DNA of 9,535 nucleotides. Source: Nautiliaceae bacterium (GTDB lineage Bacteria; Campylobacterota; Campylobacteria; Campylobacterales; Nautiliaceae). Below the pieces are notes generated by a model, which worked only from the letters and a program-made list of their open reading frames with translations, was not told the origin of the DNA and made no database searches. Shown here piece after piece: positions 2-8,341 of the stretch. Position 1 is the first letter of the stretch; each line of letters starts with the position of its first letter. The stretch lies in the NCBI GenBank assembly GCA_027063075.1, contig JAMOSM010000109.1:1-9535 (forward strand). The letters run 5' to 3'. A program made the translations under genes and the position numbers.

Positions 2-904
2 GATGTAAATGAACCCGGGATTTATCAGGAGCTTTTTGAAAAAGTGTATCTTATGCCTTTTCCTTCTCTTGGGTGGGAAGATACAAAAACAAGACTTCTT
101 GAAATAAAAGAAAAAAGCAATATTGAAGCAGTTGTTCCAAATTTGGATGCAGAACTTCCTCTTTATATTAAAAATCAGGATAAACTTCATAAACTTGGAA
201 TAAAAACGTTTTTGCCAACGTTAGAAAATTTTGAAATGAGAGAAAAAAGGCATCTGCCTGATTTTGCTAAAAAACTTGGTGTAAAACATCCAAAAACAAT
301 TGAAGTTATTTCGCTTGATGATTTAATTAAAGCTGTAAAAGAGATAGGATTTCCTGTAATGATAAAAGGAAATTATTATAAAGCTTACAAGGCTTATAAT
401 CTGGATGAAGCGATTGAATATTTTTATAAAATTTCTAATGAATGGGGATTTCCTCTTTTGGTTCAGGAGGTTGTTAGTGGGGTTGAGATAAATTATGTTG
501 GGCTTTCAAATAAAAAGCTTTTAGGTGGAGTTGGTATAAAAAAACTAACAACAACCGAACTTGGAAAAGTATGGAGTGCTCTTAGTATAAAAAATGAAAA
601 ACTTTTTGAGCTTGCAAAAAAGTTTGTTGATATTACAGGTTGGAGAGGAGCTTTTGAGCTTGAGGCTATTGCAAACGGGGATGATATTTATTTAATTGAA
701 ATTAATCCGAGGTTTCCTGCATGGGTTTATTTTGCGACGATGCTTGGAATTAATCTTCCAAAAATGATGGTTGATATTATGGAAGGAAAAGAAGTAAAAG
801 AGCAGTTTGAGTATCCTGTTGAAAAGATGTATGTAAGGTATGTTGAAGAGACAATGACAAATTTTAAAGATTTTACAAAACTTTTAACGCAAAAAGAATT
901 ATAA
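2..904 (+). CDS. ATP-grasp ligase (carboxylate-amine ligase type), 5' truncated by window edge
   Basis: The frame is open from nt 2, so the gene begins upstream; the GTG at 44 is an internal Val codon. Residues are counted from nt 2 (300 visible). The first ~65 are the end of a Rossmann-like pre-ATP-grasp domain (NEPGIY and LMPFPSLGW motifs), as in CarB-like stand-alone ATP-grasp proteins. The ATP-grasp domain follows: Lys122 in FPVMIKGNYY is the likely ATP-phosphate lysine, QEVVSGVEINYVG spans the central strand, and the metal-binding motif is EINPRFPAW (Glu233, Asn235, Arg237). Known for the family: an acyl-phosphate made with ATP is attacked by an amine or other nucleophile. The substrate cannot be read from sequence. 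From comparison with such proteins, roughly 40-60 N-terminal residues are missing (estimate). Nine bases separate it from the decarboxylase gene, suggesting the two enzymes act in one pathway. Its last helix-rich ~40 residues have no recognised motif. Confidence 0.9.
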   Translation, partial: DVNEPGIYQELFEKVYLMPFPSLGWEDTKTRLLEIKEKSNIEAVVPNLDAELPLYIKNQDKLHKLGIKTFLPTLENFEMREKRHLPDFAKKLGVKHPKTIEVISLDDLIKAVKEIGFPVMIKGNYYKAYKAYNLDEAIEYFYKISNEWGFPLLVQEVVSGVEINYVGLSNKKLLGGVGIKKLTTTELGKVWSALSIKNEKLFELAKKFVDITGWRGAFELEAIANGDDIYLIEINPRFPAWVYFATMLGINLPKMMVDIMEGKEVKEQFEYPVEKMYVRYVEETMTNFKDFTKLLTQKEL

Positions 905-913
905 GGAGAGGTT

Positions 914-2248
914 ATGAAATATGTAAAGCCTATGATAAACAGAATAGATTTTAATTTGGCAAGTAAATACGGCAGTCCGTATAAAGTTCAAAGAATAAAG
1001 AGTGAAATTGAGGGTGTTAGTGTAAATGATTTGGCTAATGAATATGGAAGTCCTCTTTTTGTATTTTCTCAAAGACAGATTGAAGAAAAATATAATGAAT
1101 TTAAAGAGGCTTTTTCGAGCAGATATCCAAAAGTTCAGTTTTGGTGGAGCTATAAAACCAATTATCTTGATGCGATTTGTAAAATTTTTCATAAACTTGG
1201 AAGCAAGGCTGAGGTTGTAAGTGAGTTTGAATATCAAAAGGCAAGACATCTTGGAGTCGATGGAAAAGATATTATATTCAATGGACCTTATAAACCAAAA
1301 GAGGCATTAAGAGTTGCTGTAAAAGAGGGGGCAAAGATTCATATTGACCATTGGTATGAGATAAACGACCTTGAAGAGATAGCCGATGAGCTTGGAGTTG
1401 AAATTCCTGTAGCTATTAGATGTAATATGGATACGGGGGTTTATCCTGCTTGGAGTAGGTTTGGTTTTAATATTGACAATGGTGAAGCATATGATGCAAT
1501 AAAGAGAATTTATGAAGGAAAAAAACTTATATTAACCGGTCTTCACTCGCATATTGGTACTTTTATGTTAAGCACTGAAGCTTATAAAAACGAAACAATA
1601 AAATTAGTTCAGCTTAAAAACAGAGTTGAAGAGGATTTTGGATATAAAATTGAATATATTGATGTTGGCGGAGGTTTTGCAAGTAAAAACAGGTTAAAAG
1701 GGGTTTATCAATCGCCTGAAGTTATTGTGCCAAGTCCAGATGAGTATGCTGAGGCTATAGTAAATGCTATTTATGAAAATAATAAAGGTGATTTACCAAA
1801 ACTTTATCTTGAAACCGGAAGAGCTTTGATTGATGAGGCTGGGTATTTGCTCACAAGCGTATTTGCAAGCAAAAGACTGCCTGATGGTAAAAAGAGTTAT
1901 ATTGTGGATGCCGGGGTAAATCTTTTATATACGGCATTTTGGTATAACTTTGAGATTTTTCTTGATAAAAGGTATGAAGGTCTTAATGAACCAAGTCAGA
2001 TAAATGGTCCTCTTTGTATGAATATTGATATTATTTCAGAAAATATTATGCTCCCTCCTCTTGATAGGGGAAGTGTTTTGACTATCTGGCCTGTTGGAGC
2101 ATATAATGTAACTCAATGGATGCAGTTTATTAGATACAGACCAAGAGTGCTTTTAATAGATAAAGATTCAAATGTACATATTATAAGAGAGGCTGAAAAT
2201 TTAGAAGATATTATAAAAAGAGAACAAATTCCAGATTTTTTAAAGTAG
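914..2248 (+). CDS. Fold-type III PLP-dependent decarboxylase, LysA-like but with altered substrate site
   Basis: This 444-aa cytoplasmic enzyme has the alanine-racemase-like barrel plus beta-domain layout of diaminopimelate/ornithine/arginine-type decarboxylases. Lys81 in WWSYKTN is the Schiff-base lysine. HSHIG (211-215) stacks on the cofactor, VGGGF (251-255) and ETGR (300-303) bind its phosphate, and Cys368 in GPLCMNID is the catalytic cysteine donated across the dimer. GAYNVTQW (395-402) closes the site. Against remembered diaminopimelate decarboxylases, the Glu after the catalytic Cys is Met369, and the Arg of the usual IRPxxY motif is Thr340, while Tyr344, Tyr397 and Arg303 remain. The cofactor machinery looks intact but the carboxylate-recognition residues do not, so I do not call it lysA. 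The substrate is probably another basic or conjugated amino acid (inference). The start follows a strong AAGGAGAGG ribosome site 9 nt after the ligase stop. It could be LysA of unusual sequence, but the neighbours argue against that. Confidence 0.88.
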   Translation: MKYVKPMINRIDFNLASKYGSPYKVQRIKSEIEGVSVNDLANEYGSPLFVFSQRQIEEKYNEFKEAFSSRYPKVQFWWSYKTNYLDAICKIFHKLGSKAEVVSEFEYQKARHLGVDGKDIIFNGPYKPKEALRVAVKEGAKIHIDHWYEINDLEEIADELGVEIPVAIRCNMDTGVYPAWSRFGFNIDNGEAYDAIKRIYEGKKLILTGLHSHIGTFMLSTEAYKNETIKLVQLKNRVEEDFGYKIEYIDVGGGFASKNRLKGVYQSPEVIVPSPDEYAEAIVNAIYENNKGDLPKLYLETGRALIDEAGYLLTSVFASKRLPDGKKSYIVDAGVNLLYTAFWYNFEIFLDKRYEGLNEPSQINGPLCMNIDIISENIMLPPLDRGSVLTIWPVGAYNVTQWMQFIRYRPRVLLIDKDSNVHIIREAENLEDIIKREQIPDFLK

Positions 2249-2252
2249 GTAA

Positions 2253-4277
2253 ATGAACTTAAAAGTATTTTTTAAGCCCTTTGCGGCTATTTTGTTTTTA
2301 AGGGATTACAGGCTTGGAATTTTTATTTTTCTTCTTTCTTTTTTACTTCCAAGCGTTGCTCTTTTGGGAGTTGTCGGACTTGTTTCTACTATACTTTTTG
2401 CTGAGTTTGTAGATATTAGAGATGAATATTTAAAATACGGTTTTTATCTTTATAACTCTTTACTTGTTGGAATGGGTGTTGGGTATTTTTATGATGTAAG
2501 TTTAACAACGGTGTTTTTAACCTCATTTTTGGCGGTTTTTACTTTTTTGTTGTCTTTTGGAATGAATAAAATTTTTGAGTTTTTTGCAATTCCCATTTTA
2601 TCTTTACCTTTTGCACTTGTAAGTATGCTTTTTTACCTTGCAAGTTTAAAATATACCAATCTTTTAAGCAATATTTTACATAGATTGCCTTTTTTTGACG
2701 TTAATATTAATTTTTTAATAAGTGCTTATCTAAAATCGTTTGGAACAATTGTTTTTTTGCCTTTTAATATTGCCGGGCTTATAATTGCTTTTATTGTGTT
2801 TTATTATTCAAGAATAATGTTTTTTATGAGTGTAATAGGTTTTTTTGTAGGAGTCTGGGTTCATTCGTTTTTTGTTCCTTTTTATCAGGCATTAAATTCT
2901 CCTTATAATTTTAATTTTATTTTAATTGCAATGTCTTTAGGGGGAATTTTTTTAATTCCGAATTTAAAAAACTATTTTTTAGCTCTTATTGGAGTTGTTG
3001 TAAGTGTTGTTTTAATAGATGCTTTGGAAGTATTTTTTAATATTTACTCTTTACCTGTTTATACCTTGCCTTTTAATATCGTGGTAATTTTGTTTTTACT
3101 TCTTTTATATTGGATTGGTTATGAGTATTATAACTTTAATATTAAAGAAACACCGGAAAAAAGTCTTAGTTATTATTTAAGCAATATCTTACGTTTTGGA
3201 GGAAAAGATATAAAAATTTATCTTCCTTTTACTGGAAAGTGGAGTGTTTATCAGGCTTTTGATGGAGAGTGGACTCATAAGGGTAAGTGGAGATATGCTT
3301 ATGATTTTGTAATTAAAAAAAATGGAAAAACTTATGAAAACGATGGGCTTTTTTTGACTGATTATTATGCTTTTGGAAAGCCTGTGATAGCTCCTGTTAA
3401 TGGATATGTTGTAGCTCTTCGCTCAGACCTTCCTGATAATTATATAGGAGTTGTGGATAGGGAGAATAACTGGGGAAATTATGTAATTATTAAAAGCGAT
3501 GCCGGATTTTATGTAGAGATTTCCCATCTTATGCAGCATTCTGTTACTGTAAAAGTTGGAGATTATGTAAAATTTGGTGATATTATAGGAAAGTGTGGAA
3601 ACAGTGGATATTCACCTGAACCACATATTCATATACAAGTCCAAAAATATCCTTATCTTGGAAGTGAAACACTTCCTTTTAAATTTGTAGATTATATAAA
3701 AGAAAATAGACTTTTTTTTTATTCTCTTCCGAAAAAAGATGAAGAGATTGAACATTTAGTGCCGGATAAATCGCTAAAATCAAAACTTACTTTTATTTTA
3801 GATGATAAATTTAGGTATGAAGTTATTGAAAATGGTGAGAAGAAAGAAGAAATTGAAATAGTTGTAAATATGAATGAAAAAGGGGAGTTTTATTTTTTTG
3901 ACGGGAATAATAAACTTTATTTTTATTTTGTAGAAAAACTATTTTATTTTTATGATTATGAAGGTACGGATGGATATTTAAAGGAGCTGTTTAAATTGGC
4001 TCCTAAAGTTCCAATGATTAATAAAAATGTAGTTTATCAAGATGTTTTACCTCTTTTTATTAACTATTCTGGCTTAAAACGCAGTTTTGTAGAGTTTTTA
4101 AGCTCTTTTAATTATAAGATTTTCAGCAAAGAAGTTACATATGAAAAAGAGTACTTAAAAATAAAATCTGAATATGGAGAAGTTTATTTTTCATTTTATG
4201 AAAAGGGATTTGATAAAATTAAATTTAAAAATATTGAGCTTAGGAGAATAGATGAAAAAAATTATTTTAATTCTTAG
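2253..4277 (+). CDS. Urea-transporter-fold membrane domain fused to M23/LytM metallopeptidase domain
   Basis: A 674-aa fusion. Residues ~20-290 are about ten membrane segments with the internal duplication of the UT (urea transporter) family: LYNSLLVGMG (66-75) then LSLPFALVSMLF (116-127), repeated as the ALNSPYNFNF region (213-222) then LPVYTLPFNIVVILFL (267-282). Known UT proteins pass urea-like small neutral amides passively. Residues ~320-480 are an M23 (lysostaphin/LytM) domain: His342 and Asp351 (HKG...YAYDF variant), PVIAPVNGYVV (377-387), His425 in ISHLMQH, and zinc/catalytic His458-x-His460 in PHIHIQVQ. M23 enzymes cut peptidoglycan cross-bridges or act as LytM regulators; all key residues seem present. 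Residues ~500-674 look beta-rich and match nothing I recognise. No separate signal peptide is needed because the first membrane segment would insert it. Its ribosome site is weak (AGG 3 nt from ATG), so translation is probably coupled to the gene ending 4 nt upstream. The next gene starts inside its end. Confidence 0.87.
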   Translation: MNLKVFFKPFAAILFLRDYRLGIFIFLLSFLLPSVALLGVVGLVSTILFAEFVDIRDEYLKYGFYLYNSLLVGMGVGYFYDVSLTTVFLTSFLAVFTFLLSFGMNKIFEFFAIPILSLPFALVSMLFYLASLKYTNLLSNILHRLPFFDVNINFLISAYLKSFGTIVFLPFNIAGLIIAFIVFYYSRIMFFMSVIGFFVGVWVHSFFVPFYQALNSPYNFNFILIAMSLGGIFLIPNLKNYFLALIGVVVSVVLIDALEVFFNIYSLPVYTLPFNIVVILFLLLLYWIGYEYYNFNIKETPEKSLSYYLSNILRFGGKDIKIYLPFTGKWSVYQAFDGEWTHKGKWRYAYDFVIKKNGKTYENDGLFLTDYYAFGKPVIAPVNGYVVALRSDLPDNYIGVVDRENNWGNYVIIKSDAGFYVEISHLMQHSVTVKVGDYVKFGDIIGKCGNSGYSPEPHIHIQVQKYPYLGSETLPFKFVDYIKENRLFFYSLPKKDEEIEHLVPDKSLKSKLTFILDDKFRYEVIENGEKKEEIEIVVNMNEKGEFYFFDGNNKLYFYFVEKLFYFYDYEGTDGYLKELFKLAPKVPMINKNVVYQDVLPLFINYSGLKRSFVEFLSSFNYKIFSKEVTYEKEYLKIKSEYGEVYFSFYEKGFDKIKFKNIELRRIDEKNYFNS

Positions 4278-4869
4278 CAGTGTTTTTTTATTTGCTTTAA
4301 GTAAAGATGAAATAAGAAAAATATATTATGAGTCTTATAACTATGAAAAAATGGGGGATTATAAAGATGCTATTAAGGTTTTAATTCCTCTTTATAAAGA
4401 ATTTCCAAACGGATATACTCTTAATTTAAGGCTTGGATGGCTTTTTTATCTGAATAAAAATTATGAAAATGCAATAAAACACTATAATATAGCTTCTAAA
4501 ATTCATTCATATTCTCTTGAGCCAAAGCTTGGACTTATGAGGGTTTTTAATTTTTTAGGAAAGTATGATAAAAGTATAAAAATCGGCAATACTGTTTTAA
4601 GAAGCGATTATTATAATTATTATGGAAATTATTATTATGGAAATGCTCTTTTAGGAATTAAGGATTATAAGAATGCTATTTTATTAGCAAATAAAATACT
4701 AACCCTTTATCCAACAAGCATTTTATTTTTAAATCTTTTAGGAAAAAGTTATTTTTATAATAAAGATTTTAAAAAAGCAAAAGATATTTTTGAAAATGTG
4801 TTAATACTAGACCCAAACAATGTAGTTGCAAAAGAGTTTTTAAAAAGAATAAAAGGAAAAAATAGATGA
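4252..4869 (+). CDS. Secreted tetratricopeptide-repeat (TPR) protein
   Basis: A 205-aa protein with a short Sec-type signal (MKK, hydrophobic 4-16, likely cleavage near A15-L-S17) and no lipobox cysteine, so probably a soluble periplasmic protein. The rest is helical TPR-like repeats: ~27-58 (YEKMGDYKDAIKVLIPLYKEFP), ~60-93 (LGWLFYLNKNYENAIKHYNIA), ~95-125, ~128-157 and ~161-193 (LGKSYFYNKDFKKAKDIFENVLILDP). TPR arrays bind other proteins; the obvious partners are the UT-M23 protein and the beta-barrel encoded on either side. It overlaps the UT-M23 gene by 26 nt and has its own good AGGAG (4242-4246) 5 nt before ATG. It overlaps the barrel gene by 4 nt (ATGA). The TPR-then-barrel order recalls YaiO-like and BcsC/PgaA-like outer-membrane proteins in which both parts sit in one chain (inference). 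Confidence 0.85.
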   Translation: MKKIILILSSVFLFALSKDEIRKIYYESYNYEKMGDYKDAIKVLIPLYKEFPNGYTLNLRLGWLFYLNKNYENAIKHYNIASKIHSYSLEPKLGLMRVFNFLGKYDKSIKIGNTVLRSDYYNYYGNYYYGNALLGIKDYKNAILLANKILTLYPTSILFLNLLGKSYFYNKDFKKAKDIFENVLILDPNNVVAKEFLKRIKGKNR

Positions 4870-5687
4870 AGTTTTTAAATATTATGGCTGTAGCGAGTAT
4901 AAGTTTTGCTTTTAATATAATGCCTTATGGTGCTTATGTAAATTATAGTAATAAAGCTTTAAAAGACAATGCTTATGTGGCGGGAATATATGCTTCTTTT
5001 TTTAAAAGTCCTTTTAAGTTTGAATTTGATGCAGAAGCTACAAAGATTACTTATAAAGATAATACGCCTGAGTGGAATCAGCAGGATTTAACAGCTGTTG
5101 TTAATTACTATAAAGGATATAATTTTGCTTATAAAATAGGTATTCACAATATTTTTATAAATCAAAACGGAAATAAAGATGATTATGACAAGGTGTTTTT
5201 TTTAGGAATGCTTTATTATAAATATTTAAAATACAATGTTGGAATAGATATTTTTTATTCCATGTATGACGGATTTAATGTAACTCAGTTATCTCCTAAA
5301 ATAGGATTTAATTTTGGAAATTACTATTCACCTGAGGGAAGTTTTTATTTTGAAGCAAGACTTAATCAAATTCATATTTCAAACTCAAATCAAACTCCTC
5401 ATCAGGATTACACCAACTTAGATTTTAAACTTCAAAATTTTAAAGGACCTTGGGTAACTACACTTAAAGGAAATTTTGGAAGAAATGCTTATAAAGTTGA
5501 TAATGGAGGATTTGTTGTTTATAATTTAGGGAATGAGTATAAATACAGCGTGGGTTTAAAAGTTAATTACAGTTTAAATACTTACAGTTCTGTTGGAATT
5601 GGATATTCTGTTTCAAATTATAAATTAAATATAGGAGGAAACGCTCATTCTTCCACTGTAGTAGTAGAATACTCAAGAGCTTTTTAA
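4866..5687 (+). CDS. Predicted outer-membrane beta-barrel protein
   Basis: A 273-aa protein with an N-terminal signal (residues 1-15, cleavage after ISFA). It then has long runs of alternating polar and aromatic or aliphatic residues typical of transmembrane strands, e.g. PFKFEFDAEATKITY, YNVGIDIFYSMYDGF, YYSPEGSFYFEARLNQIHI, KYSVGLKVNYSLN, SSVGIGYSV. It ends in VVVEYSRAF: a C-terminal Phe preceded by alternating hydrophobics is the usual BamA-recognised signal of outer-membrane proteins. About 10-12 strands would fit the length (estimate). No family motif is certain; a YaiO-like or other small barrel is possible. It is last in the operon, with an AAGGA (4853-4857) 8 nt before the ATG and a 4-nt overlap with the TPR gene, so the two are probably made together. 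Its stop codon lies within the convergent hairpin. The cargo or function is unknown. Confidence 0.77.
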   Translation: MKFLNIMAVASISFAFNIMPYGAYVNYSNKALKDNAYVAGIYASFFKSPFKFEFDAEATKITYKDNTPEWNQQDLTAVVNYYKGYNFAYKIGIHNIFINQNGNKDDYDKVFFLGMLYYKYLKYNVGIDIFYSMYDGFNVTQLSPKIGFNFGNYYSPEGSFYFEARLNQIHISNSNQTPHQDYTNLDFKLQNFKGPWVTTLKGNFGRNAYKVDNGGFVVYNLGNEYKYSVGLKVNYSLNTYSSVGIGYSVSNYKLNIGGNAHSSTVVVEYSRAF

Positions 5688-5697
5688 AAAAGCTCTT
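5675..5697. terminator. Bidirectional terminator hairpin between convergent genes
   Basis: AAGAGCTTTTT (5675-5685) and AAAAAGCTCTT (5687-5697) are perfect inverted arms around one base. Either strand forms a GAGC/GCTC-cored hairpin preceded by A and followed by T residues, so it can stop both the operon and metF. The operon's last stop (5685-5687) and the metF stop (5684-5686 on -) both lie inside it, so it is also coding. The tail on the + side is only TTTTA, so efficiency is uncertain. Confidence 0.7.
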
Positions 5698-6586
5698 TTA
5701 CTATTTCAAACCTGTTAGCAGTCATTATATGAATTTTTGGATGTTTTTTAAGTATATTTTTAAATAGACTTTTACTAAGTGTAAGCCCTGTTTTATACTC
5801 TTCTTCTTCACTTATTTTATGTGCTTTTATCAGTTTTTCTATCCAAGAGTCTGGAACATAGATTCCGGGAACATGTGAGTGTAGAAACTGGGCAGTTTTA
5901 AGTTTTGTAATAGGAAAAAAGCCAAAAATTATTTCAAACTCTTTTCTTTCATCATTAAATTCACTTCTTACTTTGTCCCTTATTTCAAGCATTTTATCGA
6001 CAATTTCCATATCATATACAGGCTGGGTGATAATTGCAGCGGCATAGTTTTTTACTTTTTTATAAATTTTTCTCTCAATTGTTGAAAAATTTTTTGCATA
6101 TGAATTGCTAACAGCAAAGGGGGTAATTGGTTTTGGTTTTATTTTAAATTCTTTTCCGCTGTAGTCCATTCCATTATTAAAAGCTCTTATAATTTCAAGT
6201 AATAAATTACTGTTTCCTTCTACTACTCCTTTTACTTTCGGCTGGTCTGACATACTTGCAGGATCGCCCGTTAAGGCTAAGATATGGGTTACATCTAAGT
6301 CATTTGCTCCAAGCAGGTCGCTTTGAAGGGCAATTTTGTTTCTGTCTCTCATACTCATTGTTGCAATTACAGGTTTTTTAAATTTTTCTTGAATTTTAAA
6401 AGCTGCTATGATTGAATTATATTTTAGCTTACTTAATGGACAGTCTGTTGTTGAGAATCCGTCTATATATTTATATGCTTCACTTTTTTCAATTTTTTCT
6501 AGCATTGGGTTTATAGTTGGCAGTTTTGGAGGAGTGGTTTCAAGGGTTATTATTCTTTCTTTTAATTTTTCTTTTAAATTTATCAT
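5684..6586 (-). CDS. metF: Methylenetetrahydrofolate reductase family protein
   Basis: A 300-aa cytoplasmic flavoenzyme close to the ~296-aa length of E. coli MetF. It reduces 5,10-methylene-THF to 5-methyl-THF for methionine synthesis and C1 metabolism. LETTPPK (15-21) matches the FEFFPP strand and puts Glu16 where the proton-donor Glu of MetF sits. MSMRDRNKIALQSDLLGA (77-94) and ALTGDP (104-109, with the flavin-contacting Asp108) are typical. FGFFPITKLKTAQFL (221-235) is the conserved C-terminal barrel motif. The RDRNxIALQSDLLGA wording is nearer to acetogen, archaeal and actinobacterial versions than to enteric MetF. The electron donor cannot be deduced; no MetV-like partner is visible. 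The start has AGGGA (6595-6591 on -) 4 nt before ATG. It is transcribed convergently to the envelope operon and divergently from the pabA-like gene. Confidence 0.92.
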   Translation of the reverse strand: MINLKEKLKERIITLETTPPKLPTINPMLEKIEKSEAYKYIDGFSTTDCPLSKLKYNSIIAAFKIQEKFKKPVIATMSMRDRNKIALQSDLLGANDLDVTHILALTGDPASMSDQPKVKGVVEGNSNLLLEIIRAFNNGMDYSGKEFKIKPKPITPFAVSNSYAKNFSTIERKIYKKVKNYAAAIITQPVYDMEIVDKMLEIRDKVRSEFNDERKEFEIIFGFFPITKLKTAQFLHSHVPGIYVPDSWIEKLIKAHKISEEEEYKTGLTLSKSLFKNILKKHPKIHIMTANRFEIVKELF

Positions 6587-6638: not shown

Positions 6639-7202
6639 ATGATTTTAATGATTGATAACTATGACAGTTTTACATATAATATTGTCCAGTATTGCCTGGA
6701 ACTTGGAGCAAATTTAAAAGTAATAAGAAATGATGAATTAAATGTTAAAGAGATAAAAAAACTTAATCCTGAAAAAGTTATTATCTCTCCCGGTCCTTCT
6801 ACTCCAAAAGAAGCTGGAGTAAGTGTTGATGTTATAAAAAGAATTAATAGACCTATTCTTGGTGTGTGTCTTGGTCATCAGTCTATAGCTTATGCATTTG
6901 GAGGAAAAATTATTAGAGCCAAAAATTTAATGCATGGAAAGACCAGTAAAATTGAAGTTACAATAAAAGACGATATTTATAAAGATTTGCCTAATGAATT
7001 TAGAGTTACAAGATATCATTCATTAGTAGTTAATCCTGAGAATCTGCCTAAAAATATAATACCTACTTCTTTTAGTTTAGATGATAATGAAATAATGAGT
7101 TTAAGAGTAAAGGATAAACCGATTTTTGGGGTTCAATTTCATCCTGAATCTATTATGAGTGAATATGGTAAAGAAATTATTAAAAACTTTTTAGAGTTAT
7201 GA
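6639..7202 (+). CDS. pabA: Class I glutamine amidotransferase, PabA/TrpG type
   Basis: A 187-aa glutaminase subunit that supplies ammonia to a chorismate-using synthase (aminodeoxychorismate synthase PabB for folate, or anthranilate synthase TrpE for tryptophan). IDNYDSFTYNIVQY (5-18) is the signature N-terminus. SPGPSTPKEAG (50-60) forms the oxyanion region, GVCLGHQSIAYAFGG (75-89) holds nucleophile Cys77, and FGVQFHPESIMSEYG (163-177) supplies His168 and Glu170 of the triad. All catalytic residues are present. ATG 6639 is preferred because AAAGG (6628-6632) lies 6 nt upstream and a TATAAT overlaps the region just before; a longer in-frame TTG at 6621 would begin upstream of the transcript start. 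No pabB or trpE is next to it, so the PabA versus TrpG choice is open; folate use would fit the neighbouring metF only loosely. The stop overlaps the next gene by 4 nt (ATGA). Confidence 0.9.
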   Translation: MILMIDNYDSFTYNIVQYCLELGANLKVIRNDELNVKEIKKLNPEKVIISPGPSTPKEAGVSVDVIKRINRPILGVCLGHQSIAYAFGGKIIRAKNLMHGKTSKIEVTIKDDIYKDLPNEFRVTRYHSLVVNPENLPKNIIPTSFSLDDNEIMSLRVKDKPIFGVQFHPESIMSEYGKEIIKNFLEL

Positions 7203-8341
7203 TAGTTTTTTTTCTTTTTTATTATCTTTTTTTGCTTTGGTATAGCGTTAATTTTTTATCGTTTTCTGTTATAGAAATACAGAGTATAGAAAAATTTTGG
7301 CCTTTGAGGTATATTATTGATTTTTCTGTTTTTTTGTTTGGAAAAAATGATTTTGCTTTGCGTTTTCCTCAGCTTTTTTTTAGTGTTTTAAGTGTTGTGT
7401 TGTTTTATAATCTTTCTAAATATATTTTTGATAAAAGAAAAGATATTTATTTTGCAAGTGTTATTTTTTCTTTGATACCGGGATTTATAATTTCTTCTTT
7501 AATTATCAATAAATCTATATATATAATTTTTTTAATTCTTCTATTTTTGTATTTTTATTTAGTTAATAAAAAAATTTCTTATTTTTTATTGTTAATTTTT
7601 GTTTTTGTTGATTATAGCTTTATTTCTTTATATATAGCTTTGATTTTTTATTCTATCTATAAACAGAATAATAGATTGTTACTTTATTCTTTATTACTTT
7701 TATCTTTAAATGCAAACTATTTTGAATATTCTATAGGAGGAAAACCAAGAGGTTATTTTTTAGATATTTTTGGGACATATATTTTAATTTTTTCCCCTTT
7801 AGTTTTTATCTATTTTTTATATACTCTTTATAAAGGCTTTTTTTATAGAAAAGGAATTGTGTTTTTTATATCAGTTACAGCTTTTATACTTTCTATTTTA
7901 TTTTCATTTAGACAAAGGATAAAGATAGATGATTATGCTCCTTTTGTTTTACCATATGTGCTTTATATGGTAAAAATTTTTTTAAATTCTTATAGAGTTA
8001 GACTTCCTGTTTTTAGAAAAGGCTATAAAATATTATTTACACTTTTATTTTCTTCTTTAATAATTTTTGATATTATGCTTTTTTTAAATAAATATACTCC
8101 TGCAAGAAATTTAACTCAAAGTTTTTATTTTATAAAACCCCTTTCAAATTTTTTAAGACAAAACAATATTAATTTTATTAACTGTAATAACGATTCTTTG
8201 TGTAAAGTTCTTATATTTTATGGTATGAAAACTGGGAATAAATATAAGTTAAATTATTCTAAAAGAAATAAAAAAGTTTCAATTTTTCACAAAAACAAAA
8301 AAATTTTAGATATTGATGTTTCAAAATTAAACACATTATAA
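7199..8341 (+). CDS. Polytopic membrane protein, reduced GT39/ArnT-like glycosyltransferase
   Basis: A 380-aa integral membrane protein with about nine to ten hydrophobic segments up to ~residue 295, then an ~85-residue Lys/Asn-rich tail. The stretch FWPLRYIIDFSVFLFGKNDFALRFP (about 33-57) followed by a hydrophobic helix resembles the conserved PPL..w....lFG.nefa.RlP region after the first loop of PMT/ArnT-type (GT39/GT83) transferases. These use polyprenyl-phosphate sugars to modify lipid A or proteins at the inner membrane. The acidic loop motif expected just before it (Asp-Glu) is Ile25-Glu26 here, and the protein is shorter than the usual 450-550 aa, so activity is uncertain. Base composition is extremely T-rich (one 60-nt line, 7501-7560, has 5 G/C). 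It starts inside the end of the amidotransferase gene, suggesting one transcript without an obvious metabolic link. It might instead be an unrelated Campylobacterota-specific membrane protein. Confidence 0.55.
   Translation: MIVFFLFYYLFLLWYSVNFLSFSVIEIQSIEKFWPLRYIIDFSVFLFGKNDFALRFPQLFFSVLSVVLFYNLSKYIFDKRKDIYFASVIFSLIPGFIISSLIINKSIYIIFLILLFLYFYLVNKKISYFLLLIFVFVDYSFISLYIALIFYSIYKQNNRLLLYSLLLLSLNANYFEYSIGGKPRGYFLDIFGTYILIFSPLVFIYFLYTLYKGFFYRKGIVFFISVTAFILSILFSFRQRIKIDDYAPFVLPYVLYMVKIFLNSYRVRLPVFRKGYKILFTLLFSSLIIFDIMLFLNKYTPARNLTQSFYFIKPLSNFLRQNNINFINCNNDSLCKVLIFYGMKTGNKYKLNYSKRNKKVSIFHKNKKILDIDVSKLNTL

What the first reader, a model, noticed from the sequence alone, without database searches (positions are those of the whole stretch)
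2..5687. Five-gene ligase / decarboxylase / UT-M23 / TPR / beta-barrel operon with no named pathway
Seen: five + strand genes with junctions of +9, +4, -26 and -4 nt, ending at a terminator. Two are cytoplasmic enzymes of amide-bond and amine chemistry, one is an inner-membrane channel fused to a peptidase, one a secreted TPR protein and one an outer-membrane barrel. Known: each family alone. Inference: the ligase and decarboxylase make a small amide or amine that passes through the UT-like channel, while the M23, TPR and barrel parts connect it to the cell wall and outer membrane. Alternatively the set tailors a wall peptide. I recall no characterised system with this membership.
Basis: partly seen in the sequence, partly recalled or inferred. 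Interest (0 to 1): 0.78.

Follow-up and report, generated by a model that had tools for sequence, protein, structure and literature searches.

The report
Leader-tagged decarboxylase operon with channel-peptidase
Bacteria of at least three phyla carry the same undescribed gene set, in which a decarboxylase bears an N-terminal tail shaped like the leader of a lasso peptide and sits with a peptide-recognition protein, a ligase and a channel-peptidase fusion; the recognition protein likely grips that tail, and the set is predicted to make and export a small amide or amine that is still unidentified.

Summary
The five genes, junctions and terminator are real, but the contig cuts the first gene. Relatives have one more gene upstream, a PqqD-family recognition protein (RRE). 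The core PqqD/ATP-grasp/decarboxylase/UT-M23 is no local accident: at 38 UT-M23 loci in three phyla the decarboxylase lies upstream in 37, ATP-grasp in 35, PqqD in 34; one genome keeps the trio on another contig, the other misses are contig ends. Decarboxylase and UT-M23 occur in the same 16 of 298 Campylobacterota genomes. The decarboxylase is not LysA: its disordered N-terminal tail carries YxxPx[IVL] (36 of 36 readable), with Lys at 16 and Gly/Ala at 18 in 24 of 27 each, the lasso-leader motif and spacing. PqqD's best solved relative is the lasso RRE TbiB1. Only decarboxylases among 7,823 nearby ORFs have the full spaced motif. M23 is predicted cytosolic, so the wall-linking idea is not supported; urea use is unlikely. 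Best reading: an RRE docks decarboxylase to ligase to make a small amide or amine, leaving through the fused channel. Binding, substrate and product are untested.

The parts
2..904 (+). ATP-grasp ligase, 5' end cut by the contig start; carbamoyl-phosphate-synthase-like / PylC-like group
   Evidence: Pfam and NCBIfam; nearest solved CPSase large chain 1a9x and 2pn1
914..2248 (+). Type III PLP decarboxylase, nearest to N-citrylornithine decarboxylase FslC and to LysA but below both curated cut-offs
920..973 (+). Leader-like tail of the decarboxylase: Y3..P6..I8..K18..G20 (Y-x2-P-x-I-x9-K-x-G), predicted disordered
   Evidence: 36 of 36 readable operon decarboxylases have YxxPx[IVL]; invariant in A3; pLDDT under 50 at residues 1-21
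2253..4277 (+). UT-M23 fusion: UT-like channel (residues 1-287), M23 metallopeptidase (about 329-490), C-terminal beta domain (about 500-674)
   Evidence: Pfam; model pLDDT 88; Foldseek dvUT and lysostaphin/EnpA-type M23; H342 D351 H425 H458 H460 invariant in 20 of 20
4252..4869 (+). TPR protein with an N-terminal signal-like segment (by eye), predicted periplasmic
4866..5687 (+). Predicted outer-membrane beta-barrel (no Pfam hit); ends in Phe like 9 of 10 relatives (the other ends in Trp)
   Evidence: one relative hits PF13505 at E 5.5e-4, below its cut-off
5675..5697 (+). Terminator-like palindrome shared with the convergent gene

Best explanation
A gene set conserved in at least three phyla (a PqqD-type recognition protein, an ATP-grasp ligase, a decarboxylase with a lasso-leader-like tail and a UT-like channel fused to an M23 peptidase, usually with a TPR protein and in Campylobacterota a predicted outer-membrane barrel) likely makes a small amide or amine in the cytoplasm, with the recognition protein predicted to hold the decarboxylase to the ligase by its tail, and would send the product out through the channel. 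Shown by calls: the gene set, its order and co-occurrence, the tail motif, its restriction to the decarboxylase among ORFs at the loci, a second decarboxylase homologue without the tail in the same genomes, and the conserved M23 residues. Predicted: M23 on the cytoplasmic face, TPR in the periplasm, barrel in the outer membrane. Inferred: PqqD binds the tail; ATP-grasp forms an amide on an amino acid whose alpha-amine and carboxylate stay free for the PLP enzyme (as N-citrylornithine does for FslC, or carrier-bound glutamate for BtrK); the decarboxylase then yields an amine; the M23 domain trims a peptide or cuts an amide next to the channel mouth, a layout that works like a peptidase-containing transporter; the product leaves by the channel and the TPR/barrel.
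For: Linkage: at 38 UT-M23 loci (18 Campylobacterota, 6 Bdellovibrionota, 14 Cloacimonadota) the decarboxylase lies upstream on the same strand in 37, ATP-grasp in 35, PqqD in 34. Co-occurrence: UT-M23 and this decarboxylase are in the same 16 of 298 genomes and the same 11 of 60. Co-decay: in G247 every gene from decarboxylase to barrel is in pieces while the four neighbouring genes are whole; in G090 decarboxylase and UT-M23 are broken. RRE: PF05402 over cut-off in 3 of 3 tested; best solved relative TbiB1, E 1.5e-9; in 19 of 22 genomes it is the only PF05402 hit. Tail: YxxPx[IVL] in 36 of 36 readable decarboxylases, in 119 of 120 listed database relatives (the other starts inside the tail; mostly close relatives); 32 of 32 ORFs with the full spaced motif at 39 loci are decarboxylases; disordered in the model. 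YxxP is the recognition sequence of this RRE group (PMC12710340, section 7). Topology: K+R higher on the N/C-terminal side in 20 of 20. Not urea use.
Against: No binding, product or expression data exist. The tail could serve the decarboxylase itself. The loose motif Y..P.[ILV] in the first 40 aa also occurs in 57 non-decarboxylase ORFs of 7,823 (53 under 120 aa), so a nearby or distant precursor peptide is not excluded; the whole-genome tail search found even the decarboxylase's own tail in only 17 of 23 genomes. The UT pore is narrow; export is assumed. In two Bdellovibrionota loci with room downstream (L059, L060) no TPR or barrel was recognised, and no barrel relative was recognised in 14 of 14 Cloacimonadota loci. 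M23 location rests on charge counts; H342 lies in a low-confidence stretch.
Confidence: 0.42

Rival explanations
1. An RRE-dependent RiPP pathway with a distant precursor: PqqD and ATP-grasp modify a peptide encoded elsewhere, M23 removes its leader, and the decarboxylase copies the leader motif only to join the complex.
For: PqqD-family RRE and ATP-grasp are RiPP enzymes in other systems; M23 is predicted to face the cytoplasm.
Against: No other ORF with the full spaced motif at 39 loci; no other protein with a clearly similar tail in 23 genomes (insensitive; one 24%-identical match at E 0.67 in G079 was not followed).
Confidence: 0.2
2. Wall-peptide tailoring: M23 works in the periplasm on peptidoglycan, and the decarboxylase and ligase alter stem-peptide parts.
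For: M23 is mostly a wall-peptidase family; the M23 best matches are lysostaphin, EnpA and LytM; the decarboxylase is a LysA relative.
Against: Predicted cytoplasmic M23 in 20 of 20; the PqqD-type RRE has no place in it.
Confidence: 0.13
3. A carboxylate-siderophore-like metabolite: ATP-grasp joins an organic acid to a diamino acid and the FslC-like enzyme decarboxylates it.
For: FslC of rhizoferrin biosynthesis is the nearest characterised decarboxylase by sequence and fold.
Against: Score far below the FslC cut-off (220 against 500). No siderophore uptake or export gene was recognised at the loci, but most neighbours were not scanned. A UT pore is narrow for a siderophore.
Confidence: 0.07
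4. Urea or amide uptake for nitrogen.
For: UT fold and family.
Against: Urease alpha over cut-off in 1 of 23 carriers, by a partial hit. The positions aligned to dvUT's slot Gln and Glu (numbers recalled) are Gln in 0 of 20 and Glu in 1 of 20. N. profundicola, a carrier, does not grow on urea as sole nitrogen source (PMC2628731, passage).
Confidence: 0.04

Closest known systems
Lasso peptide biosynthesis with split B1 RRE (TbiB1, TfuB1) and YxxPxL leader
   Same: PqqD-family RRE whose best solved relatives are TbiB1 and TfuB1; Tyr, Pro, Ile/Leu at 1, 4, 6 and a Gly at 18, the spacing described in PMC10368454 (passages)
   Different: The motif is on an enzyme, with Lys in place of Thr(-2); no separate precursor with the full motif at the loci
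Butirosin side-chain enzymes BtrJ (ATP-grasp) and BtrK (decarboxylase)
   Same: An ATP-grasp ligase paired with a type III PLP decarboxylase; BtrK is among the fold matches. BtrJ and the pathway order are recalled
   Different: No acyl carrier protein gene was recognised in the conserved core; a PqqD-type RRE takes the first place
FslC, N-citrylornithine decarboxylase of rhizoferrin synthesis
   Same: Nearest solved sequence and fold; shared GPxCM motif
   Different: Below the FslC cut-off; ATP-grasp partner; N-terminal tail
LysA, diaminopimelate decarboxylase
   Same: Same fold and family
   Different: Below the LysA cut-off (234 against 297.9); 18 of 23 carriers have a second, LysA-type homologue, without the tail in 7 of 7 loci
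Urea transporters (dvUT, UT-A/B)
   Same: Fold: 3k3g, target TM 0.80
   Different: Slot residues not kept, fused M23, below the NCBIfam urea-transporter cut-off (87 against 274.6)
Peptidase-containing ABC transporters (recalled)
   Same: Peptidase on the cytoplasmic face fused to a membrane passage (working analogy from the predicted topology)
   Different: UT channel instead of ABC transporter, M23 instead of C39; export is inferred

Membership tests
RRE-dependent RiPP (lasso-type) cluster | PqqD-family RRE in the cluster | tested here: met
   PF05402 over cut-off, in 34 of 38 loci; not in the window itself, whose contig is cut
RRE-dependent RiPP (lasso-type) cluster | Separate precursor peptide with the leader motif | tested here: inconclusive
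   None with the full spaced motif at 39 loci; 53 short non-decarboxylase ORFs carry the loose motif, as chance would also give; distant genes not excluded
RRE-dependent RiPP (lasso-type) cluster | Lasso cyclase and B2 protease | not tested
   No search for these families was made
LysA | NCBIfam equivalog cut-off | tested here: not met
   234.2 against 297.9 bits
FslC | NCBIfam cut-off | tested here: not met
   220.2 against 500 bits
Urea transporter | UT fold and Pfam family | tested here: met
Urea transporter | Slot Gln and Glu (recalled from dvUT) | tested here: not met
   Gln 0 of 20, Glu 1 of 20
M23 peptidase | His/Asp metal and catalytic residues | tested here: met
   H342, D351, H425, H458, H460 in 20 of 20; H-to-D spacing is longer than the usual H-x3-D (recalled)
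M23 peptidoglycan hydrolase | Periplasmic or extracellular location | tested here: not met
   Predicted cytoplasmic in 20 of 20 by charge; prediction only
Butirosin-type BtrJ/BtrK pathway | Dedicated acyl carrier protein | tested here: not met
   The small conserved first gene is PqqD family, not ACP
Known anti-phage defence system | Match to a PADLOC model | tested here: not met
   One marginal hit, E 0.0086, for PqqD, in 7 proteins

The most novel reading that the evidence does not exclude
The decarboxylase is its own RiPP-style precursor. PqqD presents its lasso-leader-like tail to ATP-grasp, which charges the conserved tail lysine with an amino acid; the decarboxylase processes that cargo on its own arm; the cytosolic M23 domain cuts it free at the mouth of the fused UT-like channel, and the TPR/barrel pair lets the small amine out: leader, carrier and enzyme in one polypeptide.
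Probability: 0.15. Interest if true: 0.9.

Novelty: categorically new. Interest (0 to 1): 0.72.

Why it matters
A four-gene core kept together in at least three phyla, with UT-M23 fusions named by databases from several more, points to an important function that has no name. If the RRE docks on an enzyme, leader recognition is not confined to precursor peptides, and mining tools that look for short precursors would miss such pathways. A cytosolic M23 domain fused to a UT-like channel would be a new export layout. Cultured carriers (Nautilia profundicola, Nitratifractor salsuginis) make it testable.

Tried and rejected
Rejected: 'only a local neighbourhood'; 'the decarboxylase is the cell's LysA'; 'urea use'; 'known defence system'; 'viral' (12 pattern matches, no relative among viral contigs). 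A PqqD/ATP-grasp fusion seemed present in L060, but the two hits lie in different frames, so I dropped it. Annexin and designed-protein hits (some at E 3.5e-5) are short helix matches and were ignored.

Literature: eight searches listed no description of this set; a ninth was for urea-transporter topology. Seen: section 7 of PMC12710340; passages only of PMC12710340, PMC7470986, PMC8939145, PMC2922099, PMC2628731, PMC10092268, PMC5067487, PMC10368454 and PMC10541013. The 2009 amidoligase survey that I recalled is not held, so it may already mention part of this set.

Rows left out of counts: three decarboxylases (L064, L083, L085) have no readable N-terminus and are not among the 36 (39 examined); L025 and L034 are the same genome there. 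Of 33 Cloacimonadota genomes with UT-M23, 14 were examined with wide flanks; of 15 short-flank loci the decarboxylase was seen in 13, the two misses lying at contig starts. In one search the script picked wrong frames for six decarboxylase loci; its LysA part was redone. TPR matches of 22-31% in Cloacimonadota may be generic repeat similarity.
Full report
OBSERVATION. The five + strand genes and their junctions are as described, and a terminator-like palindrome lies at 5675-5697. The window is a complete contig of a metagenome assembly that is 70% complete. Named close relatives are Nautiliaceae. The first gene is cut by the contig start.

THE FULL SET. I fetched wide neighbourhoods of UT-M23 relatives. 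Upstream of ATP-grasp lies a gene of about 78 aa whose product belongs to PqqD (PF05402, E 6.6e-10, 2.3e-11 and 4.4e-10 in one member of each of three phyla, all over cut-off). Its closest solved relative is TbiB1, the recognition protein of a lasso peptide pathway (E 1.5e-9), then TfuB1 (2.3e-5). In Campylobacterota a response-regulator-like gene lies between TPR and barrel in 10 of 18 loci (one in fragments) and elsewhere within 9 kb in 5 more, one of them a weak match; the window lacks it. Accessory parts vary: TPR relatives were recognised in 17 of 18, 3 of 6 and 14 of 14 loci, barrel relatives in 15 of 18, 2 of 6 and 0 of 14 (Campylobacterota, Bdellovibrionota, Cloacimonadota). In L026 the barrel protein has an extra N-terminal part, and in several Cloacimonadota a protein of about 400 aa with what I read as TPR-like and barrel-like parts follows the TPR gene (reading by eye, not modelled).

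LINKAGE. At 38 loci (18 Campylobacterota, 6 Bdellovibrionota, 14 Cloacimonadota) the decarboxylase lies upstream on the same strand in 37, ATP-grasp in 35 and PqqD in 34. In G030 the trio sits together on another contig; the other misses are contig ends. UT-M23 was found in 16 of 298 genomes of the window's phylum, 6 of 144 of the phylum of G320 and 33 of 117 of that of G321. Over the 298 genomes this decarboxylase is in exactly the same 16, and over 60 of the order in exactly the same 11. Families f6 and f18 hold genomes with both and genomes with neither. Related genomes are not independent events. In G247 all genes from decarboxylase to barrel are in pieces while PqqD, ATP-grasp and the four genes beyond the barrel are whole; in G090 decarboxylase and UT-M23 are broken and the others whole. 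UT-M23 fusions are also named by databases from Magnetomorum, Syntrophobacteraceae, Delongbacteria, Fibrobacter, Calditrichia, Aquificae and Desulfurobacterium; their neighbours were not seen.

DECARBOXYLASE. It scores below the LysA and FslC cut-offs and is nearest to FslC by sequence (E 2e-53) and fold (Foldseek ranks 1-4). Homology to FslC and LysA starts at residues 28 and 32. The tail before that carries Y-x-x-P-x-[I/V/L] in 36 of 36 decarboxylases with a readable N-terminus, out of 39 examined (35 genomes). In 27 aligned sequences position 6 is I (26) or V (1), position 16 is K in 24, and position 18 is G (19) or A (5). Of 120 listed database relatives 119 have the motif; the other starts inside the tail (mostly close relatives). 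The model gives pLDDT under 50 for residues 1-21, although Y3, P6, I8, K18 and G20 are invariant in its 25-sequence alignment: a conserved, disordered linear motif. [quoted passage not shown] With Tyr as 1 these are positions 1, 4, 6, 16 and 18, the spacing of the tail, with Lys for Thr. YxxP is listed as a characterised RRE recognition sequence, and W/Y/LxxP/L/I is shared by PqqD- and lasso-type RREs (PMC12710340, section 7). Of 7,823 ORFs of 20 aa or more at 39 loci, 32 have the full spaced pattern and all 32 are this decarboxylase. Against: the loose motif Y..P.[ILV] within the first 40 aa is in 91 ORFs, 57 of them not the decarboxylase. LysA-type homologues lack the motif (0 of 7 loci) and are present in 18 of 23 carriers (the five without are G320, G321, G466, G472, G485). 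In 19 of 22 genomes with a PF05402 hit the operon's is the only one. So the decarboxylase tail is the best candidate ligand of PqqD; the binding is inferred.

UT-M23. The model (pLDDT 88, pTM 0.83) has the UT fold (3k3g, target TM 0.80), then M23, then a beta domain for which the listed matches show no relative. H342, D351, H425, C448, H458 and H460 are invariant in 20 of 20 sequences. With loops from the model widened by three residues, K+R is higher on the side of the N- and C-termini in 20 of 20 (7-18 against 2-7). By the positive-inside rule, and by the known topology of urea transporters (recalled), M23 is predicted to face the cytoplasm. Positions aligned to dvUT's slot Gln and Glu (numbers recalled) are Gln in 0 of 20 and Glu in 1 of 20. 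Urease alpha is over cut-off in 1 of 23 genomes, by a hit to 36 of 121 positions. N. profundicola does not grow on urea as sole nitrogen source (PMC2628731, passage); I equate it with G078 because P0274, named N. profundicola AmH, lies on a contig of the same length, 1,676,444.

MECHANISM. Most likely ligase and decarboxylase act in one complex that PqqD holds by the decarboxylase tail. PLP decarboxylation needs a free alpha-amine and carboxylate, so ATP-grasp would join the amino acid through its side chain (established chemistry; its use here is inferred). M23 on the same face as these enzymes would trim the tail or cut the product loose at the channel; channel, TPR and barrel give a path out. 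The compound is unknown. My odds for the steps: unit of genes, near certain; PqqD-tail docking about 0.6; cytosolic M23 about 0.75; export of a small amide or amine about 0.35.

NOVELTY. The held literature gave no description; most subscription papers are not held, and one survey that I recalled was not available. I rate it categorically new because no known kind that I tested accepts it: no recognised separate precursor at the loci, no carrier protein as first gene, and equivalog cut-offs missed for LysA, FslC and the urea transporter. If a distant precursor is found it becomes a new variant of RRE-guided pathways.

Noticed in passing
L063 (G247) and L064 (G090): Broken copies of the operon: in G247 the genes from decarboxylase to barrel are frameshifted while flanking genes are whole; in G090 only decarboxylase and UT-M23 are broken.
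   Followed up: partly
L148 (G030:C20) and L036: One genome has split the set: PqqD, ATP-grasp and decarboxylase on one contig, UT-M23, TPR and the regulator-like gene on another.
   Followed up: partly
L028:12505-13101 and homologues: Response-regulator-like protein with a Trans_reg_C domain and a poorly recognised N-terminal half, next to TPR and barrel in many Campylobacterota but absent from the window.
   Followed up: no
window 7199-8341: Very A+T-rich gene (about 20% G+C) for a PMT_2-type membrane protein behind a trpG/pabA-type glutamine amidotransferase; the pair recurs beside the operon in L024, L028, L029 and L030.
   Followed up: no
L030:4333-7479, L024:2296-5351, L023:276-3417: A TAXI-type binding protein and a large fused TRAP-type permease (by eye) lie directly upstream of PqqD in some Nautiliaceae.
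   Followed up: no
L093, about 12503-15217: A lipoprotein-like protein of about 900 aa (c5) without a known family in my calls follows the set in 11 of 22 loci compared, mainly Cloacimonadota.
   Followed up: no
UT-M23 residues about 500-674 (window about 3750-4274): A conserved, confidently modelled beta domain after M23 with no relative among the 50 listed PDB matches.
   Followed up: no
window 5684-6586: A short MTHFR-like gene, convergent with the operon, whose best NCBIfam model is the MTHFR half of a homocysteine methyltransferase/MTHFR fusion, below cut-off.
   Followed up: no
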